Below, in pieces: positions 8,924 through 39,345 of a DNA stretch of 64,000 nt. The DNA comes from Antedon mediterranea. Lineage: Eukaryota; Echinodermata; Crinoidea; Comatulida; Antedonidae. The stretch covers positions 13,023,001 through 13,087,000 of the forward strand of contig NC_092673.1 in NCBI RefSeq assembly GCF_964355755.1, written 5' to 3'. Both the position numbers and the translations under genes were made by a program. A model generated the notes under the pieces. The model ran no database searches. It saw nothing but the letters and a program-made list of their open reading frames with translations, and had not been told where the DNA came from. The number at the start of each line of letters is the position of its first letter. Position 1 is the stretch's first letter.

Positions 8924-8979
8924 TTACACATGCACATTCTCATATAGTATCATCTGCGGTAAAAAAATAAAAGTTTTTC

Positions 8980-10123
8980 TTACAATGATATCATGTATAT
9001 CAACGTCATTTACATCGATTATCGTTTTCGTTAATGTTGTTGTCTTCTTCGTTGGCAATGGTATCATGCATACTGTATCAACGTCATCAACAATATCGAT
9101 CTTATCTTCATAATTTTCGTTAATGTTGTTTTCTTCGTTGGCAATAGTATCATGCATATCAACGTCATTAACATCGATGTTATCTTCAAAATTTTCGTTA
9201 ATGTTGTTGTCTTCTTCGTTGGCAATGGTATCATGCATATCAACGTCAATAACAACATCGATCTTATCTTCATAATTTTCGTTAATGTTGTTGTCTTCTT
9301 CGTTGGCAATGGTATCATGTAGATCAACGTCATTAACATCAATCTTATCTTCATAATTTTCGTTAATGTTGTTGTCTTCTTCGTTGGCAATGGTATCATG
9401 TAGATCAACGTCATTAACATCGATCTTATCTTCATAATTTTCGTTAATGTTGTTGTCTTCTTCGTTGGCAATGGTATCATGCATATCAACGTCATTAACA
9501 ACATCGATCTTATCTTCATAATTTTCGTTAATGTTGTTTTCTTCCTTGGCAATGGTATCATGCATATCAACGTCATTAACAACATCGATCTTATCTTCAT
9601 AATTTTCGTTAATGTTGTTTTCTTCTTCGTTGGCAATGATATCATGTATATCAATGTCATTAACATCGATCTTCATAATTTTCATTAATGTTGTTGTCTT
9701 CTTTATTGGCAATGGTATCATGCATATCAACAGCATTAACAACATCGATCTTATCTTCATAATTTTCATTAATGTTGTCTTCTTCGTTGTCAATGGTATC
9801 ATGTATAACAACGTCATTAACATCGATCTTATCTTCATAATTTTCATTAATGTTGTTGTCTTCTTCGTTGTCAATGGTATCATGCATATCAACGTCATTA
9901 ACAACATCGATCTTATCTTCATAATTTTTGTTAATGTTGTCTTCTTCGTTATCAATGGTATCATGCATATCAACGTCATTAACATCGATCTTATCTTCAT
10001 AATTTTCGTTACTGTTTTTGTCTTCTTCGTTGGCAATGGTATCATGCATATCAACGTCATTAACATCGATCTTATCTTCATAATTTTCCCTAATGTTTTT
10101 GTCTTCTTCGTTGTCAATATCAC
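8980..10123. repeat. 81-bp tandem repeat array
   Basis: Direct repeats of 81 bp (for example 9301 to 9382) with shared GGCAATGGTATCATGCATAT and TCGTTAATGTTG cores. Units alternate between forms with one or two AAC codons and one or two TTG codons, giving 75-84 bp lengths. Divergence is low in the centre and higher at both ends, as expected for unequal crossing over. Confidence 0.95.
8985..10123 (-). CDS. Acidic 27-residue coding minisatellite (81-bp unit)
   Basis: About 14 tandem units of 81 bp (variants of 75, 78 and 84 bp) encode on the minus strand an Asn/Asp/Glu-rich 27-mer containing NEEDNNINENYEDK and DVDMHDTIA. Nearly all length variants are multiples of three, so the frame is kept from 10123 to about 9665. 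There a 5-bp deletion (CTTATCTTCAT shortened to CTTCAT) shifts the frame, after which the acidic phase resumes in another frame down to about 9100. Upstream, LLSSDIDNEED is preceded by a pyrimidine-rich AG acceptor near 10150, suggesting this is one exon of a larger gene. The plus strand is also open but hydrophobic and antisense. Function is unknown; low-complexity acidic repeats are typical of disordered extracellular or calcium-binding proteins. Confidence 0.5.
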
Positions 10124-10311
10124 TCGATAGTAAGAAATTAGAAACTAATAATTGAAAAGCAGTACAATATTAATTTCTATGCTGGAGATTGTATTATTAT
10201 TATTTATCATAATTAATTGTATTATTTTGTTTGTAAACTATATGTAACTGTTATTTATTTTCTTTGTTATGTTATTGTAATACCGTATGTGTTACATGTA
10301 TGAAATGAAAT

Positions 10312-10692: not shown

Positions 10693-12425
10693 CGCCCGTA
10701 TTCTTAAACCGGACTTTAGTCGTAGTTCGAAGTTCGACTTGAAAATGTCGTAGTTCGAGCTATTACTTCAAATTCGATTCAAAAACGATGTATCCAAAAT
10801 TTAACTTTTCATGTTGTTCATATCAAAATGTATTGCTATTAAATTACTCAATGTACAGAGGAGAGTGACGTGTGTGCTTCGTTCGTCCAACACAAGCATG
10901 ATGATGGAAGGGGGAAATTATGTTACAATGTTTATGACGTACCTTGATGACGGGTGTCCTTATGTAAAATATTGGTCGATTATAGCTTGTCTGTAGACTC
11001 TACCAGCTAATGCATCCTCTACATTTTCATCACCATTAACTTCTTCATCGATTTCAATATCTACATCATCCCGTATAAATTCTACATTTCTTATAATGGT
11101 GATGTTGTGTAGGCAAGCTACAGCAACTATGGTTGTTAGGGTTGTTTCAAGCTTTAAGCGTAAATAATTTAAACAATTGAATTTACGCTTCCAGTTCCCA
11201 AACAACCGCTCAACTGAATTCCTGGTTCTAATTTGGGACCGGTTGTACCTCTGTTGAGGCCTCCTATCAGGATTGATAACTGGTGTCAGGAGGTACCTCT
11301 TGCACCCATAACCAGAATCTCCAAGTAGCACACCATTGTGTACTCGACGTTCAAATTCTTCGCAAATTAAACTATTTTCAAAAATACGAGAGTCGTGCAC
11401 GGACCCTTGCCATCTAGCAACAATGTCTCTAATCATTAGACGATGGTCACCTATAACTTGGACATTTATAGAAAAATATCCCTTTCTGTTCCGAAATAGT
11501 TCGGCTTCCTGTCCACCTGGACAAGGTATCCGTACGTGCGTGCAGTCGATACATCCGATTACATTAGGGAAACCAGCAATCGCCCTAAATCCTTGTTGAA
11601 CGATATCTCTGCCATCACCCATTGGAAACACAATCCACCTTCTATTCTCCTGTGCTAAAGCTCGAGAAACTTTTGCGATTATTCTGGAAAGGGTAGTTGC
11701 GATATGTTTTTTGCATCCCCGTGCATTAACTGAAATGTTCCAGTAGCAAAATAGCGTAGGGCTACGCAAACCTCTAACAACGGTGGTATTGTTGGGTGAC
11801 CACCACCTCCTCTTGTATCCTTACGTAAATCAAGAATTCCTAACAATTCAACAATAATCTCTTTAGAAACCCGATACCTTTGGACGAATTGGGAATCGTC
11901 ATAATCAAATAGGGGGTTTGAACGATCTCTTATTACTTCAATTTCACGATAATTTAAGCGATCATATCGCTGAACACGGGCGTTGAATTGCCTCGCCATG
12001 GTTATTAAAAATGGCGGATCAAAATAAAGTCCAACTTAACCAAGTTAAGTCGGACTTCAACATTACAAAAAAAGCCATTTATGACACGGTGTTAAAAAAC
12101 CCCAATTAGCATTATCAAAATAAATATAAAATAATATTGTAATGAGCTAATAAAAAACTAGACATTTCATAATTCAAAATGCAACAAAAGTGATACGTTT
12201 ATTCACGACACCTTTTTTATAAACATCGTTTAAAAACCATTTAGTCGACCATTTAGTCTGCCCCATCCAGGACTAAAAAAATCGATCAAAATCCGTCTTG
12301 ATTTAGTCGAGGTTGGCCTGAATTAGTCGGCGATTTAGTTGAAGTTCGGTTTATGAATTAAAATGACGTCATTTTTAAAGTTTTAGCTCGAACTACGACT
12401 AAAATCCGGTTTAAGAATACGGGCG
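10693..12425 (-). mobile_element. PIF/Harbinger DNA transposon with one frameshift
   Basis: Terminal inverted repeats of 38 bp with one mismatch, beginning CGCCCGTATTCTTAAACCGG, lie at 10693-10730 and 12388-12425. The 3-bp target duplication TAA flanks both sides (10690-10692 and 12426-12428), the TWA site typical of the superfamily. The 1733-bp element encodes only a HARBI1-like transposase on the minus strand; the Myb/SANT-like second gene common in Harbinger elements is absent. Intact ends and a single frameshift indicate a recent insertion. Confidence 0.93.
10960..11999 (-). pseudogene. HARBI1-like transposase (one frameshift)
   Basis: The N-terminal part (11999-11679) starts MARQFNARVQRYDRLNYREI and holds the helical region through LEVCVALRYFATGTFQL. 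The C-terminal part (to 10960) carries the DDE_Tnp_4 core: GCIDCTHVRIP (first Asp), the WQGSVHDSRIF segment, GDSGYGCKRYL and RNSVERLFGNWKRKF (catalytic Glu). Alignment of the two overlapping frames around 11695-11700 suggests loss of one base, the only disruption seen. Without it the protein would be about 340 residues, normal for HARBI1-type nucleases. It binds element ends and cuts at TWA sites in the nucleus. It ends with an acidic stretch containing DDVDIEIDEE. The ATG at 11999 sits about 390 bp inside the right TIR, leaving space for a promoter. Confidence 0.9.
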
Positions 12426-15068: not shown

Positions 15069-16364
15069 CTACAAAAGAAAATTCTCAATGCACAACAGCT
15101 GCCACCTCGTTGTTGCATAAAAATGTTGCACTTGTGAAAAAAAAAATATGGTCCAACCTACCGGCAAATTAACATACCTCTGGTGATCGAGAAGTCCCTC
15201 TAAGCATACCAGGACTCTCACCGAATTACGCAAAATCTCCTTGAAATGATTCCCAATAAAACATTGCGAATGGTATGCTTGATTTTTGACGTGCAGCTCA
15301 TCATCCAAAATTGAATTCAACAACTTTTCTCTTGGACCAATTATCCCTTTAACTTCTTCATATACTTCCGCCAATTCCTTTTCTGCTACACCCTTCTCCT
15401 TTTCCATCTTTTCTACGCTTTCCTTACAACTTTTTTCTCTATTGGTGTTCAAGCTGCTTTCTACATTGATGACAATGGAATTCCATATTGCACATAGTCC
15501 TCACCCTTCAAGCCCACACAATCTACATGAAACCATTTCCTATCCTCTTCCAACTCCTCATCACAGCTTTCGCATCTAATCCAGGAAATGTCCCCAGCCA
15601 CTACTCCTTCTACTTTATGCCTTGCGAGTTCACTAGTGGCTAGGGCACATTTGTCCGAAAGACCATTTCCACGTTGACGATTCATACAATTTCGAAATCC
15701 TTCCAGAAGTGAAACTTGATATCTTAAGTCGGCTCTTGATACTTCCGTCTTCTCTTCTAATTCTAGTTCTGTTATTTATTTGTTAATTTCGTAGCTTAAG
15801 TTAGTTAAGATGTTTTAAAAGGTACCAAGCTTGATTAGCTCTGGCTATATCTTGGCTACCTTTTGTATTGATTAATTGTTTGATAAAATAAAGAAGAAGA
15901 ACAGGGAAAAAATTACTTTACCTTTTCCGTTTTCATGTTCCATTCAACGAACGTCGGGTTCTCTTCGACATTTTTACTTCCGCTTTTCTCGCTATGTCCT
16001 CGATTTGCTTTGAAAAACGAACCGTGAGACCTAACATGATATGTAGTACTGGTGGAACTACATGCACCATGTCACTTCCCATTGGCAGTAATGGTGCCTC
16101 GAAGATTGAGTGGTGGAACTTGCTGTCTCCTTTATTTTTTTTATCTGCTTTGCAGTTTGCGAGGTCTGTGGCCATTTGTCCTGGTGTTCTTTCTTCGGCA
16201 TACCACGAGGCGTTTTCACACCAGTTGCCATCTTCAGATTTTACCATTGGTGAATGTGGACGAATGGTTCGTTCATTTACAGGCCTGTACAGGTCGTCAC
16301 GATGGATATAACACCACAGACAGGGGAAGGTAGACACCGGTCCGAGGTGGCCCACTTGAGCCAC
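15069..16364 (-). pseudogene. Multi-copy 'CLWC' family protein relic, three coding blocks
   Basis: Block 1 (16364-15922) reads GHLGPVSTFPCLWCYIHRDD, then HHSIFEAPLLPMGSDMVHVV and LHIMLGLTVRFSKQIEDI. After an apparent frameshift near 15970 it ends in NPTFVEWNMKTEK at a GGAAAAG|GTAAAG donor (15921). Block 2 (15685-15461) has a CESCDEEL...WFHVDCVGL motif resembling a PHD-type zinc finger. Block 3 (15452-15069) is a charged coiled-coil-like stretch ending LHVKNQAYHSQCFIGNH, the family C-terminal hallmark. The family is multi-copy and uncharacterised in cnidarians and echinoderms, and a better copy lies at 41.9-43.2 kb. Transposon origin is inferred from copy number and decay. Whether the PHD-like block belongs to the same gene is uncertain. 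Confidence 0.6.
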
Positions 16365-16751
16365 TCATAATTACTGACTGGTTTTTCACATTTTCTGTAG
16401 TGTTAACTCATTCTGCAAATGAACTGTTAAGTGTACACACCTAACATAGCTATGTCCTCGATTTGCTTTGAAAAACGAACCGTGAGACCTAACATGATAT
16501 GTAGTACTGGTGGAACTACATGCACCATGTCACTTCCCATTGGCAGTAATGGTGCCTCGAAGATTGAGTGGTGGAACTTGCTGTCTCCTTTATTTTTTTT
16601 ATCTTCTTTGCAGTTTGCGATGGATGGATGGATATAACACCACAGACAGGGGAAGGTAGACACCGGTCCGAGGTGGCCCACTTGAGCCACTCATAATTAC
16701 TGACTGGTTTTTCACATTTTCTGTAGTGTTAACTCATTCTTTGACATGTAT
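15991..16751. repeat. Local duplication with internal deletion
   Basis: Copy 1 (15991-16411) and copy 2 (16449-16742) are nearly identical, but copy 2 lacks about 145 bp (after GTTTGCGA near 16619), where a short ATGG repeat lies at the join. Both share GCTATGTCCTCGATTTGCTT at the start and TAACTCATTCT at the end. The duplication includes the CLWC exon. Confidence 0.9.
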
Positions 16752-16932: not shown

Positions 16933-17605
16933 GTAGACAAGAAAACATTCTGTAATAAATATTTTGCTATCTATAAATAATGTGCTGCAATTTCATTCAA
17001 TTTTTGGGTAAACATGCGAGACTTTATTCATAATTTAAAATATACGTTACAGTAATAATGAAATAACAAATAACTTGGAAAAGAAGACATCGAATATTGA
17101 ATGATTTTTTGTAATACAGCAATTGCATAAAGATACTGAATATGTAAATATGTGTACAATTTTATTTCTTAAAAATTAAAATGTAATACAGTAATAACCT
17201 TGTTCACAATTATACAGCAAAATGATGCAACAAGTAACTTTTATAATGCAATATAAGCAACTGCACAAGGCCATCCATTCTGTACTGTACATATGTAAAC
17301 ATTTTCTTTTTTGTTTTAGTACACCAATGAATTCATAATTAAAATTATACGGTAGTGATGAAATGACAATGGATTTTATAATGCACCAGCAACAATTGCA
17401 TATTAAGGCTACCTATTCTGTATGTACTTATATTTTAACATTTTTCTTTTCTTAAATTGATATAACTTCTTTTATGTTTTAATTACACTTAATGCACACT
17501 TCTAAATTTGACAGTAATATAGGGTTGCATAAACATTGTTTTTAAACTGGGAAAACGAATGTGCAACATGCAATAATACGTGAAAATATTTGCTCGCAGC
17601 GCCAA
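16933..17605. other. AT-rich DNA without recognised genes
   Basis: Mostly low-complexity AT-rich sequence with repeated TGTACAT and TTTTATAATGCA fragments (two similar segments near 17220-17290 and 17360-17420). No coding signal was found. Confidence 0.4.
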
Positions 17606-17913
17606 TGTTGTAAAACGGCCGAGAATATAATCAGATTAGCAGAAAGTAGTGTGGCTTACCTGTCGTTGTGGGCTGGTCTCTTGGGAGTTCATAGCCCAGC
17701 AATTTCCAACAGTAAACACTACAATCTTTATGTGGTATCTGGGTATCACGCACGGTAGACACTCAGTCTAATATTCCGATGAGCGGTGTCTGTTCTCCGT
17801 GTATCTGCTATTCCGTCTAAACCTCAAGAGAGCGCAGGTCTCTCCGGGACGGCACACATGACCTCGGGTCACTCGGTGGACCAAACCATTAAGCGGAGGG
17901 GTATTTCACTACA
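17606..17913 (-). repeat. Candidate 3' LTR (308 bp, TG...CA)
   Basis: On the minus strand the segment starts TGTAGTGAAATACC directly after the polypurine tract and ends CAACA, giving TG...CA ends. It contains ACGACAG|GTAAGCC, a consensus 5' splice site. No second LTR exists in the window, so the boundaries are inferred from the tract and the dinucleotides only. Just beyond the end lies TTGGCGCTGCGAGCA, which resembles a primer-binding site. Confidence 0.5.
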
Positions 17914-17921
17914 CTTCCCCC
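17914..17921 (-). promoter_or_regulatory. Polypurine tract (plus-strand primer site)
   Basis: Minus-strand GGGGGAAG immediately precedes TGTAGTG, the usual position of the plus-strand primer next to the 3' LTR. Confidence 0.5.
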
Positions 17922-18088
17922 GATTTTATAAGGCCAGGGCCGGCGCCCGGGTGGTCATGCTGTAAAAAAAAACAATAACTTCTGGTTAACGCTAAGATAA
18001 CTGAATCTGGTGCATCTTCTAGCACCTTACAAAAAATAACATAATAAAATAACTTAAAACTTCTGGTAGGCCGCCGGAATGGTCGGCT

Positions 18089-19600
18089 CTACACCATAAG
18101 GAACAGATCTCGGCCGTTCTTCCGGGTCAAGTCTAGAACTTGCTCGGCGTCCTGGCCCAAGATCCTTCCGACTACCTCGGTGCACCCACTCGTTGCCCCG
18201 GAGGAGCAAAGTGGGGCCCATCGGATTCCAGTAGCAGGCGAAAGATGTGTAAAGCTGAAATAGGTCAGGGGGAAAACACTCCTAAACCTATCGGCCATTA
18301 GCACAGTCGATGAGAAATTATGCAGTAGAATGCGTACACATCTTTGAACCCGTGCTATCTGCAAGATGTTTAGGCAGTTCTGATAACACGTCTCCGCCGT
18401 CGGGTCGTTGCGACTGCCTCTTAGGTGCAGTCAAATCGCCAGATGGTGTCGAGGTGAGAAAACCTGTGCCAGTCAGCTACCGGAACGGAGTGGTCCAAGC
18501 CAATCTCCCCGAGCACCCGGGTAGCGCCGGAGCGCACCAAGGCCTTCAGTCGGGAGAGTTGACCAGGCGAGACCTTTTTGGGGTGCACCCCGACCCCCAC
18601 CTCATATCCCTCTCGCCGAAGGCGATGAATCTCCTCCGCTGAAGGGTAAGAGGGAGGATCGCAAAAGATGGCGACACCCCCAACAGGTCTTACCGGCTTT
18701 GTCTGGGCTCAAGCTGGTTCAGCTAGCAAGGTCTCCATCAGTGTGGCTCGAGGAGACAGCCTCAGAAAAGAGCGCAAACGGTCCGGGTGGAAGTGGGCGT
18801 CGAACGCTCTCATCGTGGTCCGCACCATCTTCTTCTGCCGCCTGGAGGGGGTCGGTGACCCGAGCCTCCTTTTGCGTTTTACGTTCTTAAGTCTGGTGGC
18901 CGGTGGCTGGGCGCGGCCAGTCTCGGCCTCAGCTTCGGCTGCGGCGGGCTGGGCGAGGGGATTCTCGGCCTCAGCTTCGGCGGCTAGCTGGCTCATCTTG
19001 GTGATGTCCATCCGCTGGGCCATCGCTACCATGTAGCGCCAATGGATTAGGGCCGCTGGATGGTTGAGTGGCACAAGGTTAAATCCTTCAGGTGGCTCAC
19101 CTCCGATCGCCACTTGTAGCTCGGACATCATCTCCAGTGTCCTCTGGTCGATGACGCCTACATGCGGACCAACAGCCCTCTCAGCATTCAGCTGGGTGAC
19201 CAGGTCGTCCAAAGTGGACTCCGGCCTACCCAATATTTCAACGGCGTACTTCCGCAGCAGGCAGAGCTTGGTCTGTGTTTTTTGCGGAGTCGACGGTAAT
19301 TTAAAACATGAGGGGAGGTGGTGCGACCACACGTGCCTCCTCATGTTGTGCACAGCCTCGAAGTTACATCCCGGAAACACGCACAGGTTTTTACGCCGTG
19401 GGCGTGAATCCTCGGTCGGCGCTGGATGGTGGTGGTTCTGGCGTTGACTCGAGGGCAGTATCTACGCCGGTCACGTCTCCACTGACCTCCGCCGTTGGTG
19501 CTGGGGTAGGTTCAGATGCGAGTAGTCGTCGCCAGGTTTCCTCCTGCTCCTCTCCCGACAGGGCACGCCACCGTCCATCGACTTGCCGTTGTTGTCTCAA
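18089..19600 (-). pseudogene. Extra retroelement ORF: zinc-finger-like segment plus TatD-like hydrolase
   Basis: Lies between pol and the LTR, where env would be. A Gln/Glu-rich N-terminus (19600-19391) shifts frame into CVFPGCNFEAVHNMRRHVWSHH, a C2H2-like motif with C-x4-C-x10-H-x3-H spacing. A helical Ala/Glu-rich linker with two AEAE tracts and a basic stretch (KNVKRKRR) follows. Then comes a TatD-family fold in order: FDAHFHPDR (HxH metal ligands, about 18800), a stop near 18706, GYEVGVGVHPKK, VLGEIGLDHSVP (Glu ligand, about 18500), and after a stop and frameshift HNFSSTVLMADRF and FPLTYFSFTHL. The end is EQVLDLTRKNGRDLF (about 18100). The usual LLLETDSP motif with the last Asp is not visible. 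TatD proteins are metal-dependent 3'-5' DNases. Role in the element is unknown. Confidence 0.7.
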
Positions 19601-19695
19601 CCCGATTTCGGTTGCGCCGAAAACAACTTATGGAGATACAAAAATACGAAGACAATTAAATAACGGTACCCTACAATCGCTTCAGCTTGGACTAC

Positions 19696-20823
19696 TCAGT
19701 CTCTGCAGTTAGCGCATTTGTAGCGGTCGATATTCAGAGCGTCTAAAGGTGAGACATTCACGCAGGCGCCATGGTACCAAACGTCACAGTAATCGCACTG
19801 AATCATGAATGACCCAGCCCAGGGCTTCCGGCAGGAACAGTATAGCGTTCCAGGCGCATCGTCGACGTTCTCCTCGCTCGGATCTGAAAGAGATAAATGA
19901 TAGTTAGTTATCCACCTCGGGAGCTGCCGGTCGTGACAGGGCTTGAGCTTGTCGTGGTTAAAAACCATCACTTTGTTCCTCAGCTTGACCCGGAACAGTC
20001 CCGGAGAGATAACTTGGATGATGATGCCGGGTCCCTTCCAAGGAGGACACAGCTTCTTGCATTTACCCTTCGGTTGGCTATTATCTAGCACATATACCTT
20101 ATCCCCACGGTCGTAGGGGCGTGAGAGGACACGGAGGTCGTAGTCTCTCTTCATGCGTCGCTGCGTTTCCCCCAGAGTAGCCCATGCTATGTCGTGTACT
20201 TCACGGATTGATTGTGTGAGAGCGGTCACGTAGCTATCGGGTGCTCGTGCAGTTGGAGGGTCGCTAGCTGTAAACATGAGATCGGCCGGAAGGTTGATCT
20301 CTCGTCCGAGCATCAGCATGTTGGGAGTGTACCCCGTCGAGCGATTCACCGTCGCCCAGAGGGCTCCAGTTAGCTGTGGTAGAAACACATCCCAATCTTT
20401 CTGCTGCCGGCCTACAAAACATCTCACAGCATCCATCAGTGTCCGGTTGTATCGCTCCACCTGGCCGTTGGCGGCGGGTCGGTAACTGGTGGTCCTGGTC
20501 TTGTGGATCTGTAAAACTTTACATAAAGAACTAAATAATTCACTTTCAAAATTACTCCCCTGATCAGAGTGGAGTTCCAAAGGCATCCCGAACCGGGAGA
20601 AGAAATTCCCTACCACGGCTCGGGCCGTTACCTCCGCTGTCTGACAAGGAAGTGGGCTCGCTTCAACCCACTTAGTGAATTGGTCCACCATCATGAGAAT
20701 GTATACATTGCCCATGTTGGTTTTAGGCAAAGGCCCAAGGAAATCGATATGTACCCGTTCCATGGGTGTACCTGCATGAAAGTTTGTTAAGGGATACCGG
20801 GCTTTACGGCCGGTTTTCTTATT
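19696..20823 (-). pseudogene. Ty3/Gypsy integrase with C-terminal PHD finger
   Basis: Recognisable integrase begins at KKTGRKARYPL (about 20820). Counting from an upstream ATG-frame at 20970, the catalytic triad is D76 (HIDFLGPLP), D136 (HSDQGSN) and E172 (NGQVERYNRT): D-x59-D-x35-E, exactly the retroviral-type spacing. The C-terminal domain contains YDRGDKVYVL, WKGPGIIIQV and NHDKLKPCH. The last 48 residues (19842-19699) are a PHD finger: CSC, CDYC, H, C, and CANC give Cys4-His-Cys3. It resembles PHF8/KDM7 PHDs, including aromatic-cage positions (Tyr before the first Cys, a Met before CDYC, Trp in VWYH). The frame is open from the core to the stop. The HHCC domain is deleted, so integration activity is unlikely. 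Confidence 0.9.
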
Positions 20824-21460
20824 ATGAAGGGTCGTCTTTGCGCTCCAACCACCGCAGGATAGGCTGGAGATCAGCATCCTTACGTTGTTGGTCCCGGAGT
20901 TCGCTGACGGAGTACCCCCAACATCGGGCGGTCGGTGTCTCCGGCTGAATCGATGTGACCATATCTCCATCCTGTAAAATACAAATATTAGTTAATCCCT
21001 TGGAAGCCCGGGTTACTTCCACGGTCGCTCGACCACCCGGGTCCCATACAAACCCCTCATTACCCACTCCTCCACTTGCCTGTCGAATCTGGGAGATGGG
21101 TACGACGTCGTCGACATCCTCCCGGAACCGGGCCCATTTCGCATGCGTCCTACGGCAGTAGGTGCAACCCCCACAGGGCAGGTCGTCCGGAGTGATGGCA
21201 CCGTGCTCACACCCCCCAAGACGGGAGAGTGCGTCTGCATTGGTGTGTAAACTACCTCGCTGGTGCTCGACTACCATGCTATACTGGCTGAGCTCCTCCA
21301 TCCAACAAGCTAGTTGTCCTTGGGGACCTTTGAAATTAAGGAGCCAGGTTAGACTGCTGTGGTCGGTTCTTACCCGGAAAGGCTGGCCCAGCAGGTAGTG
21401 GCGGAAATGCCGGGTCATATACACAATGGCCAGCAACTCCTTACGAGTTGTGCACCAGTA
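20822..21460 (-). pseudogene. Gypsy RNase H domain and linker
   Basis: Starts at a broken edge with TRKELLAIVYMTRHFRHYLL, then FRVRTDHSSLTWL, the RNase H strand with catalytic Asp, and HTNADALSRLGG, the conserved ADALSR end of the domain. A Cys-rich linker CGGCTYCRR follows and then a region ending LERKDDPS at 20822. Reverse transcriptase should precede but is absent. The normal continuation into the H2C2 zinc domain is also missing, since the reading jumps to the integrase core at the same position. Cellular role: degradation of the RNA strand during reverse transcription. Confidence 0.88.
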
Positions 21461-21534
21461 ATGACAAGCTTACAACCATGGTTTGTGTGCATCAAACTTT
21501 GCAGATGTGCTTGCTCGCGATGAAGATTGAGAGT

Positions 21535-37690: not shown

Positions 37691-37939
37691 TTCACTGTAC
37701 AAAGTTAAAATACCAATAAGCTTTGTTTTTTTTTAAAATTTTGTTTGTATTATATACATAAAATGGTATCGCCAACACCTTAACCAAAGAAATGCAAGAA
37801 TAACTTCAAACATTCATTTTGTCAACAGTTTATTTTTATCTTTCACCCACCCGAGTGATGTTGATCTAATGTAATTTTAATTGTTTTTTTATCATCCGCA
37901 AATAATCTACACTTCTACTTACTGTTATTTGATGAAGGA
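37691..37939. other. Spacer
   Basis: AT-rich, no recognised element. Confidence 0.35.
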
Positions 37940-39345
37940 CAGACAGTTGCGATACACAACTTCTTTCAGGGGACATTGACACAAATCCTGGACCAGACAG
38001 GCCTAGGTCTGTTCCAGTTATTCTGGTTGTGGTGCAAGCACTTCTAAAACATGCTACTGATAATTGCTTGTTTATCAAAAACCAACATGGGTTTTTACCT
38101 AATAAATCATGTGCCACGCAACTTGCAACTATTATCCATGACTGGTCCTCTATTTTAGATAAAAGATCTCCATCCCATATTGATGCCATTTTTTTAGATA
38201 TCTCGAAGGCCTTTGACCGGATGCCTCATGACATTCTCCTCAATAAGCTTTCCCAGCAATTTAACATTACTGGTGATATATGGTACTGGTTAAAGTCTTT
38301 TTTAATTAAAAGATACCAAAAGGTTCAATTTAAAGGGTCTTCATCTAACTGGGTGGAGGTAACCAGTGGGGTACCTCAAGGCAGTGTACTCGGTCCCATT
38401 CTTTTTAACTTTTTTATTAACGATATTATTTGTTCACTTAAATGTAAAACTGCTATTTTTGCTGATGATACTCTTATTTATAATGCAATTAACTCTCCTC
38501 AGGATTCTCTAAACCTTCAAGTTGATCTGGACCGACTTGGTCTGTGGAGCCAAGCAAATCGCATGCCTTTCAATGTTATGAAGACGAATGTCCTGCATGT
38601 CACACGTTCGCGTAACAGACAGTTCTCTAAATACCTTTTGTTTGGCTCTCATATTAGTCCGGTGACAAAGCTAAACGTATGTTGGGCTTTGTTTGGAGTG
38701 TGGCTGGACATGCTTCGACCAGTGCATTTTTGTCTTTGTACAAAAGTCTTGTTTTGCCTGGTCTGGAGTATGCGCAACCTGCTTGGTTTCCATGGACGAA
38801 GTCTTTGTCAGATCAGCTTGAGGGGGTCCATAGGAGAGCAACTCGTCTTGCTCTCAAACAGCATCGTGGACAGATGTGCTTTGAGGAGAGGTTAAATTTG
38901 CTTTCAGTTTCATCTTTGTCTGTTAGAAGAGATAAATTTCTTATTATATTTTGTTTTAAGGTTCTGGTGGGGTTTCTGGACTGCAGCACAGTTCATAACT
39001 GTATTTTAATAAATACTCGTCACAATGATCGCTTGTGCTTCAGACATCAAGCATCAAGGACACAGGCTTTTTTTCCATTCTATAGCAATCAGGTTACCCC
39101 GTGTCTGGGACCAGCTTCCCAGAAAGCCCATCAGCCTTCATTAGAAAAGTTCATATTCATTTTGTTTCGCTGTAACTGTATTTTGTCTTTACGTCTTTTA
39201 TGTATAAACTGACTTTGGGGTTGGGTCAACCGGCTCAGCTACAGTGATTAAGTTCACTTAGGTTGACCCTGGTCTCCCCAATTTCAGTTTTTTTGTTTTG
39301 TATATACTTAAATAGACCAAATAAATAATGAAATGAAATGAAACA
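37940..39345 (+). mobile_element. CR1/L2-like LINE with a 2A-like NPGP motif, internally deleted
   Basis: A frame open from about 37935 starts SCDTQLLSGDIDTNPGP. The D-I-D-T-N-P-G-P core resembles the 2A ribosome-skipping consensus D-x-E-x-N-P-G-P. It runs directly into the RT: VVVQALLKHATDN (38029), KNQHGFLPNKSCATQL, FLDISKAFDRMPHDILL, GVPQGSVLGPILFNFFINDI, TAIFADDTLIY (catalytic), and WSQANRMPFNVMKTNVLHVT. After a frameshift near 38690 the C-terminal region follows: LVLPGLEYAQPAWFPWTK, VHRRATRLA. The endonuclease and early RT are missing, so a deletion joined the N-terminus to the middle of RT. The 3' end is AAATAAATAATGAAATGAAA at 39319-39345. Confidence 0.88.
37963..37998 (+). other. 2A-like oligopeptide coding segment
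   Basis: LLSGDIDTNPGP in frame with the downstream reverse transcriptase. The Glu of the consensus is replaced by Asp, which may weaken skipping. 2A-like sequences are known at the N-terminus of sea-urchin non-LTR retrotransposons. Confidence 0.65.

What the first reader, a model, noticed from the sequence alone, without database searches (positions are those of the whole stretch)
18089..19600. TatD-like nuclease in the env position of a Gypsy retrotransposon
Between pol and the candidate LTR lies a reading frame with a C2H2-like motif and then TatD-family motifs in the correct order (HFH, GVHP, GEIGLD, FSSTV...FPLTYFSF, and a C-terminal DLTRKNGRDLF). It has been disrupted but not scrambled. 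A metal-dependent DNase carried by an LTR element is unexpected. It could trim cDNA ends, act against competing DNA, or have been captured from the host.
Basis: partly seen in the sequence, partly recalled or inferred. Interest (0 to 1): 0.9.

Follow-up and report, generated by a model that had tools for sequence, protein, structure and literature searches.

The report
Gypsy retrotransposon carrying a TatD-nuclease gene
A jumping gene in an unidentified, probably animal, genome really carries a DNA-cutting-enzyme (TatD) gene where retroviruses keep their envelope gene; one branch kept the gene while losing the cutting site, which hints that the protein is used for more than cutting.

Summary
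Confirmed and extended. The window holds a decayed Ty3/Gypsy copy (minus strand): integrase with a PHD finger, then a zinc-finger-like/helical/TatD frame, then an LTR. The frame occurs at 26 places in this genome, 21 with integrase or PHD just upstream. In four copies bounded by LTR pairs and target-site duplications it is open and PF01026 matches above cut-off (best 1.7e-19). It belongs to the element and is not a neighbouring host gene; the two other TatD loci found look like host TATDN1/TATDN3.

Lineages A and C keep the metal ligands. B replaced nearly all of them, yet its TatD part shows dN/dS 0.27 against an older copy (p=4e-6; divergent stretches filtered out). A splice donor in the LTR and an acceptor at the frame's start suggest env-like spliced expression. 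Sister lineages D/E have a similar frame without TatD, so TatD looks added. In young B-type elements, full-pol copies deleted the frame, and TatD-bearing copies lack PR-RT-IN.

Best reading: an accessory nucleic-acid-binding protein that gained a nuclease, later inactive in B. Function is inferred. I found no published TatD-bearing LTR element in the library searched.

The parts
20822..21469 (-). pol fragment: end of RNase H and linker
   Evidence: PF17917 E 2.4e-17; I saw nothing of pol 5' of here among the frames listed
19696..20991 (-). pol fragment: integrase core and C-terminal PHD finger
   Evidence: rve E 5.2e-15, PHD E 5.8e-8
19391..19627 (-). first piece of the accessory (TatD) frame; the acceptor-like site at its start is altered in this copy
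   Evidence: 90% to L003 residues 1-70
18709..19461 (-). second piece: C2H2-like motif, helical stretch, basic stretch, TatD HxH motif (HFH)
   Evidence: HxH alignment; zinc finger and basic stretch by eye, no Pfam match
18421..18708 (-). third piece: TatD GVHP and GEIGLD motifs
   Evidence: PF01026 E 2.4e-5
18089..18430 (-). fourth piece: TatD LHLRG, LLHNFSS, FPLTYFSFT and C-terminal DLTRKNGRDLF
   Evidence: PF01026 E 0.047, collinear
18175..18264 (-). TatD ExDxP motif (LLLESDGPH) in another frame
   Evidence: three-frame reading
17914..17930 (-). polypurine tract next to the LTR
   Evidence: alignment of window, L003, L004, L005
17606..17913 (-). LTR (TGTAGTG...ACAACA), 308 bp
   Evidence: window, L003 and L004 diverge right after ACAACA; 19 genome matches to 17609-17914
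17660..17692 (-). candidate leader exon in the LTR: ATG, 11 codons in all, ending in phase 0 at the donor
   Evidence: also in L003, L004, L007 LTRs, not in L024
17653..17662 (-). candidate splice donor CAG|GTAAGCC
   Evidence: AGGTAAG in 1.55% of 2000 dinucleotide shuffles of this LTR
17589..17605 (-). copy of the primer-binding site directly after the LTR
   Evidence: same word after the 5' LTRs of L012 and L003

Best explanation
The frame is a standing accessory gene of a PHD-bearing Ty3/Gypsy clade. It sits in the env slot and, like env, is probably translated from a spliced short mRNA (donor in the LTR, acceptor at the frame's start). Its core is a C2H2-like finger plus helical stretch with a basic region, most likely a nuclear protein that binds the element's RNA or cDNA. 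A TatD nuclease domain was added once, before lineages A, B and C split. In A and C it is predicted to be an active class-II (HxH) two-metal nuclease that could trim or clear ssDNA, abasic or hybrid intermediates. In B it has lost the ligands and would act only by binding. SHOWN by sequence: position, LTR bounds, domain match, ligand states, low dN/dS between copies, tree order (moderate support), splice-like signals. INFERRED: splicing itself, zinc binding, nuclear location, binding target, enzyme activity, benefit to the element.
For: Domain: PF01026 1.7e-19 (L003), 1.9e-8 (L012), above cut-off; L014 and L015 also above it; a profile of seven element TatD pieces finds E. coli YcfH 1yix 4.5e-6 and S. 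aureus 2gzx 7.1e-5. In the element: IN and/or PHD upstream on the same strand within 1.5 kb in 21 of 26 places; LTR pairs with TSDs around the frame in the 4 copies checked: L003 99.67% (GTACT), L012 99.66% (TTTG), L014 99.33% (GTAG), L015 100% (ATAG). Gag exists separately in L003's element (CCHC E 4.2e-6). Ligands. TatD part dN/dS: A L003-L004 0.16 (p 3e-5), A L003-L005 0.17 (1e-10), B L012-L021 0.27 (4e-6), C L032-L028 0.20 (8e-8). Signals: donor in 7 of 7 B LTRs tested and 4 of 5 A-type copies tested, leader ATG in phase in those 4; acceptor at the frame's start in 6 of 10 A- and C-type stretches (L003, L004, L007, L016, L008, L028) and in 9 of 10 B junctions. Order of events: integrase tree; frames without TatD in D/E.
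Against: TatD-less B derivatives with full pol are mobile: 8 of 8 places L061-L068 share one deletion of almost the whole frame; LTR pairs 99.67 and 100% in the two checked. Acceptor-like sites arise in 21-51% of shuffles of the same short stretches, and 4 of 10 stretches, the window included, lack one at the frame's start. The dN/dS values keep only 21-codon neighbourhoods with at least 50% identity, which lowers them; with a 30% filter whole-frame values are 0.29 for L003-L004 and L012-L021, but 0.79 and 1.09 for pieces of the old B pair L021-L022. Among young B copies they are 0.49-0.74 on few changes, so selection after the B split is not shown. No Pfam zinc finger in A or B frames; 'helical' rests on a pLDDT-42 model; the link to D/E is modest (phmmer 6e-6; hhalign E 3e-4, probability 40%). 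No RNA or protein data.
Confidence: 0.5

Rival explanations
1. The frame is useful only as a working nuclease, for example to trim cDNA ends or destroy competing or host DNA.
For: A and C keep the ligand positions with dN/dS 0.16-0.20 on the TatD part in the best pairs. TatD enzymes are 3'-5' exonucleases and AP endonucleases (passages of PMC4176340 and PMC10085689).
Against: Lineage B lost the ligands in every covered copy yet keeps open frames of about 570 codons in L012, L014, L015 and dN/dS 0.27 against L021. Integrase does its own end processing (general knowledge).
Confidence: 0.2
2. Hitch-hiker: a captured gene with no benefit, decaying at different speeds in different lineages.
For: Clean loss in 8 of 8 B-type full-pol places; dN between A and B 0.58 for TatD against 0.15 for integrase (with a looser identity filter for TatD); many copies broken; L021-L022 dN/dS 0.79-1.09.
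Against: Low dN/dS on the TatD part in A, B and C pairs; the frame kept while pol was lost in L012, L014, L015; conserved donor and leader ATG.
Confidence: 0.2
3. Chance juxtaposition of a Gypsy remnant with a host TATDN gene.
For: The window copy alone could look so.
Against: Same order at unlinked places, inside LTR pairs with TSDs; of the 16 matches, 14 lie in element copies and 2 (L042, L043) look like intron-split host TATDN1 and TATDN3 (names by my reading).
Confidence: 0.01

Closest known systems
TatD nucleases, class II (TATDN2/TATDN3, YcfH, YjjV)
   Same: PF01026 domain, HxH and the other ligand motifs in A and C; best solved matches are YcfH and S. aureus TatD
   Different: Behind a C2H2-like and helical part, carried by an LTR element; lineage B lacks the ligands
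QatD (TatD of the bacterial Qat defence system)
   Same: L032 scores 2.4e-15 against the NCBIfam QatD model and 1.4e-11 against PADLOC
   Different: Far below the QatD cut-off (56.3 of 230 bits) and nearly tied with the general TatD model; Qat partner genes not sought
Env of errantiviruses and retroviruses
   Same: Position between pol and the 3' LTR; probable expression from a spliced short mRNA
   Different: No envelope match in L003 or L012
Additional ORFs of plant Gypsy elements, e.g. [quoted passage not shown]
   Same: Extra gene downstream of pol, sometimes nuclear or enzyme-like
   Different: Sense strand, TatD domain, enzyme lost in one lineage, probably animal genome
sORF2 of Drosophila MDG1-group elements (PMC11952523: abstract and passages)
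   Same: A non-Env accessory protein serving an LTR element
   Different: sORF2 is a short membrane protein, mostly upstream of gag

Membership tests
Ty3/Gypsy LTR element | pol order PR-RT-RNaseH-IN | tested here: met
   L049 (with L003 downstream) and window Pfam matches
Ty3/Gypsy LTR element | LTR pair, TSD, PBS, polypurine tract | tested here: met
   LTR pair and TSD in the 4 copies checked; PBS read in L012 and L003; PPT in A copies
Chromovirus | Chromodomain at the integrase C-terminus | tested here: not met
   PHD finger instead; no chromodomain match
Errantivirus-like with env | Envelope protein with fusion and membrane parts | tested here: not met
   No envelope family in L003 or L012 frames at E up to 1; a glycoprotein model (PF09595) at E 0.015, below cut-off, in a low-complexity stretch of the window piece; no membrane-segment predictor was run
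TatD nuclease family (PF01026) | Profile match above the curated cut-off | tested here: met
   L003 70.6 bits, L005 67.2, L012 34.5, cut-off 27; single window pieces below it
TatD class II | HxH plus E91, H127, H152, E201, D203 ligands | tested here: met
   L003, L032 and the window (E201 read); ligand set from passages of PMC4176340 and PMC10085689
TatD class II | The same in lineage B | tested here: not met
   letters present: first H changed in 9 of 9, GVHP H in 10 of 10, E91 in 10 of 10, H127 in 8 of 8, H152 in 9 of 9, D203 in 7 of 7; second H of HxH kept in 9 of 9
TatD nuclease family | TIM-barrel fold | not tested
   The predictor's rule does not list genome loci; only a window piece was folded, badly
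TatD nuclease family | Metal-dependent nuclease activity | not testable with these tools
   needs protein
C2H2 zinc-finger protein | Zinc-finger profile match | tested here: not met
   No Pfam zinc-finger match in the A or B frames; the C-C-H-H pattern is read by eye

The most novel reading that the evidence does not exclude
A two-part retrotransposon. One partner (L061-L068 type) has gag and full pol but has lost the TatD frame. The other (L012, L014, L015 type) has no PR-RT-IN core but keeps the PHD piece and an open frame for a catalytically dead TatD protein, and in L012 and L015 a divergent gag-like frame. LTR plus leader are 96.5% alike over 1089 bp (L012 against L061's element), and LTR pairs are 99.3-100% in the three and two copies checked. 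The dead TatD protein would be a nucleic-acid adaptor that secures packaging or chromatin targeting, so each partner supplies what the other lost.
Probability: 0.15. Interest if true: 0.85.

Novelty: new variant of a known kind. Interest (0 to 1): 0.62.

Why it matters
LTR elements with extra genes are known, but I found no report of a TatD nuclease in one (searches, limited to an open-licence library; most listed papers were seen as listings only). The clade shows gain, catalytic death and deletion of one captured enzyme beside a related pol, within one genome, so what accessory proteins do for retrotransposons becomes testable by comparison. It also warns that TATDN-like gene models in repeat-rich animal genomes may be element genes; a figure legend on the giant squid Hox region lists TATDN2 beside a pogo-element gene (PMC6962438; a lead only).

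Tried and rejected
Scans of viral contigs with four queries found none; tblastn in phages and plasmids with the 95-aa piece found none. PDB search of single window pieces found no TatD. Structure: the window piece gave pLDDT 42 and was not searched. Donor of the TatD domain: HxH and the YcfH/QatD scores point to class II but do not choose between host and bacterial sources; no tree of TatD was built. PHD in Gypsy integrases: searches listed nothing on it that I recognised (one passage read). Organism: not identified (354 Mb, 18 contigs); 'probably animal' is my impression from its elements and host genes. A match to PF09595 (a glycoprotein model, E 0.015) in the basic/Ala-rich stretch was judged composition. 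Genome-wide searches with the B gag-like frame and the B LTR did not complete, so partner counts are missing.

Full report
1. What is in the window. The window is C4:13023001-13087000 of a 354-Mb genome in 18 contigs, not named. On the minus strand lie a pol remnant, RNase H (20822-21469) and integrase ending in a PHD finger (19696-20991), then a broken frame (about 19627-18089), then a polypurine tract and an LTR (17606-17913). The frame reads, in order: an N-terminal piece; a C2H2-like motif, a stretch I call helical (predicted so in a poor model), a basic stretch and HFH; GVHP and GEIGLD; LHLRG, LLHNFSS and FPLTYFSFT; LLLESDGPH in another frame; and DLTRKNGRDLF. PF01026 matches two pieces collinearly (2.4e-5 and 0.047). 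No Pfam zinc finger is found. The copy has at least one stop and four frame changes, so it is a pseudogene.

2. The frame belongs to the element. A genome search with the 250-aa window piece gave 42 matches (53 candidates, all scored); 30 became loci, 12 did not and are not counted. With the PF01026 search (16 matches) and after merging overlaps, 26 places hold the frame; L026 is cut before the TatD part. L030 and L031 (no TatD) and L042 and L043 (which I read as host TATDN1 and TATDN3 exons) were set aside. Integrase and/or PHD sequence lies upstream on the same strand in 21 of 26 places within 1.5 kb; misses L009, L019, L024, L025, L041. Window, L003 and L004 share the sequence from the frame to the LTR end and diverge right after ACAACA. 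L003 has LTRs at C6:1080608-1080911 and 1089952-1090256 (one mismatch in 304) with TSD GTACT. B copies L012, L014 and L015 have pairs at 99.66, 99.33 and 100% with 4-bp TSDs. Upstream of L003 lie gag with a CCHC knuckle, protease, RT, RNase H and the integrase zinc-binding domain.

3. Lineages. A with older kin (12 places: window L002, L003-L010 after merging, L016, L024, L025), C (L028, L032, L041) and B (11: L012-L015, L019, L021-L023, L026, L027, L029). L003's 563-aa frame matches PF01026 at 1.7e-19 and L012's 570-aa frame at 1.9e-8. L003 is open to the end, but its last 40-odd residues read in another frame than in L005.

4. Active site. The ligand set is from passages of two papers: E91, H127, H152, E201, D203, with H62 important, in E. 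coli TatD (PMC4176340), and the HxH motif of class II (PMC10085689). Window, L003, L028 and L032 keep all seven positions tabulated, L041 the five covered; the other A-type copies show scattered changes, for example L004 two and L005 one. B, letters present: first H of HxH changed in 9 of 9 (C in 8, W in 1), GVHP to GVAP in 10 of 10, E91 to R in 10 of 10, H127 to E in 8 of 8, H152 changed in 9 of 9 (A in 8, R in 1), D203 to N in 7 of 7; E201 is G where I read it. The second H of HxH stays in 9 of 9. E91A, E201A and D203A each inactivated E. coli TatD (PMC4176340), while H127A and H152A did not, so B is predicted inactive as a nuclease.

5. Selection. TatD part, Nei-Gojobori with Fisher tests, keeping only neighbourhoods of 21 codons with at least 50% identity (this removes frame-shifted tails and lowers the ratio): A L003-L004 0.16 (p 3e-5), A L003-L005 0.17 (1e-10), A L003-window 0.36 (p 0.065), B L012-L021 0.27 (4e-6), B L012-L022 0.40 (2e-3), B L012-L029 0.29 (6e-4); B L012-L013 0.51 (0.22), B L012-L019 0.25 (2e-4), B L022-L029 0.54 (0.067), C L032-L041 0.42 (9e-3) and 0.23 (3e-4), C L032-L028 0.20 (8e-8). 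One search stopped at L012-L027 on a division by zero (no synonymous change) and that pair was dropped. With a 30% filter on whole frames or pieces: L003-L004 0.29, L003-L005 0.28, L012-L021 0.29, L012-L022 (C-terminal piece) 0.42, L012-L029 0.43, but L021-L022 0.79 and 1.09; among the young copies L012, L014, L015 and L027 0.49-0.74 on few changes. TatD dN between A and B is 0.58 (20% filter), against 0.15 for integrase (50% filter).

6. Expression. CAG|GTAAGC with an ATG 33 bases before it, open and in phase 0, is in 4 of 5 A-type LTR copies tested (window, L003, L004, L007; L024 differs), and AAG|GTAAGC in 7 of 7 B LTRs tested; AGGTAAG occurs in 1.55% (A) and 0.7% (B) of 2000 shuffles. In L003 the acceptor CATAG| is itself the stop that opens the frame, so splicing would join in phase 0, and the frame has no ATG before its zinc-finger motif. 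An acceptor at the frame's start was seen in 6 of 10 A- and C-type stretches; window, L005, L006 and L010 lack it by my criterion, and several stretches hold other acceptor-like sites. In B the pol stop TAA is followed by a pyrimidine tract, CAG and an ATG in 8 of 10 junctions asked for, and in L021; L013 was not found. Acceptor-like sites are common in shuffles (21-51%), so position and recurrence carry this point.

7. History. Integrase/PHD search: 100 matches listed, 97 of 888 candidates scored. I chose and read 3.2 kb downstream of 18 of them. L061-L068: no TatD frame, one shared deletion that spares about 21 codons. L074: B with TatD. L069-L071 and, in pieces, L073 (lineage E) and L072 (lineage D): zinc-finger-like and helical frames without TatD; no Pfam match above cut-off in the three tested, L069, L070, L072. 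L076 and L078, more distant, have C2H2 motifs there, below Pfam's cut-offs; L075 and L077 gave nothing clear. Integrase tree of 16 rows, midpoint-rooted and with a long-branch warning: (D,E) outside (A,(C,(B,B-deleted))), support 84/90 for the TatD-bearing side, 92/91 for C with B, 100/97 for B with its deleted kin. Simplest history: the N-terminal module first, TatD added once, ligands lost in B, frame deleted in one B branch. The N-terminal alignment to D/E is modest.

8. Division of labour. Stretches spanning L012, L014 and L015 hold no match (E up to 1e-4) to PR, RT, RNase H or integrase core but keep a PHD piece and the TatD frame. L012 and L015 also hold a frame of at least 699 and 706 aa (it reaches the edge of the stretch) with weak gag similarity; none was found for L014. 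L061-type elements have gag (638 aa in the two checked) and, in 4 of 8, an open pol frame of 1418-1419 aa. LTR plus leader is 96.5% alike over 1089 bp between L012 and L061's element; LTR pairs of the two L061-type elements checked are 99.67 and 100%. This may be ordinary parasitism by a defective element, or complementation; the data do not decide.

9. Known or new. Extra genes downstream of pol are known in plant Gypsy elements, including an enzyme domain in orchids (PMC11963269, passages and a reference title), and a non-Env accessory protein serves Drosophila elements (PMC11952523, abstract and passages). No listing joined TatD with an LTR element; passages on TatD or TATDN were read in three of the listed papers for this point, the rest seen as listings. 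TATDN2 is described as removing the RNA strand of R-loops (PMC12754012 passages); a role on RNA:DNA hybrids here is my inference. Hence: new variant of a known kind.

Noticed in passing
17589-17605: The window LTR is followed directly by a primer-binding-site copy, then other sequence: perhaps a leftover of faulty reverse transcription or recombination.
   Followed up: partly
10960-11820: DDE transposase (DDE_Tnp_4 E 4.5e-29), PIF/Harbinger-like by recall; the neighbouring frame 11679-12035 was not tested.
   Followed up: no
37936-38892: Reverse-transcriptase-like frame preceded by a 2A-like peptide (GDIDTNPGP; both recognised by eye).
   Followed up: no
15991-16740: Near-perfect direct repeats of 172 and 114 bases, 458 and 326 apart.
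   Followed up: no
8924-10169: Long repeat array, open in several frames, units of roughly 25 residues rich in N, D and E (not measured).
   Followed up: no
L069:1272-3047, L070:1150-2982: Lineage-E accessory frames of 592 and 611 aa with an extra N-terminal part and no Pfam match above cut-off.
   Followed up: partly
L054:1-2118: Gag-like frame (706 aa, reaching the edge of the stretch) of a pol-less B copy without Pfam match; about 30% alike to the gag of L061-type elements.
   Followed up: partly
C10:14474650-14491497: L004 copy: two LTR matches 16.8 kb apart on one strand, so perhaps carrying other insertions.
   Followed up: no
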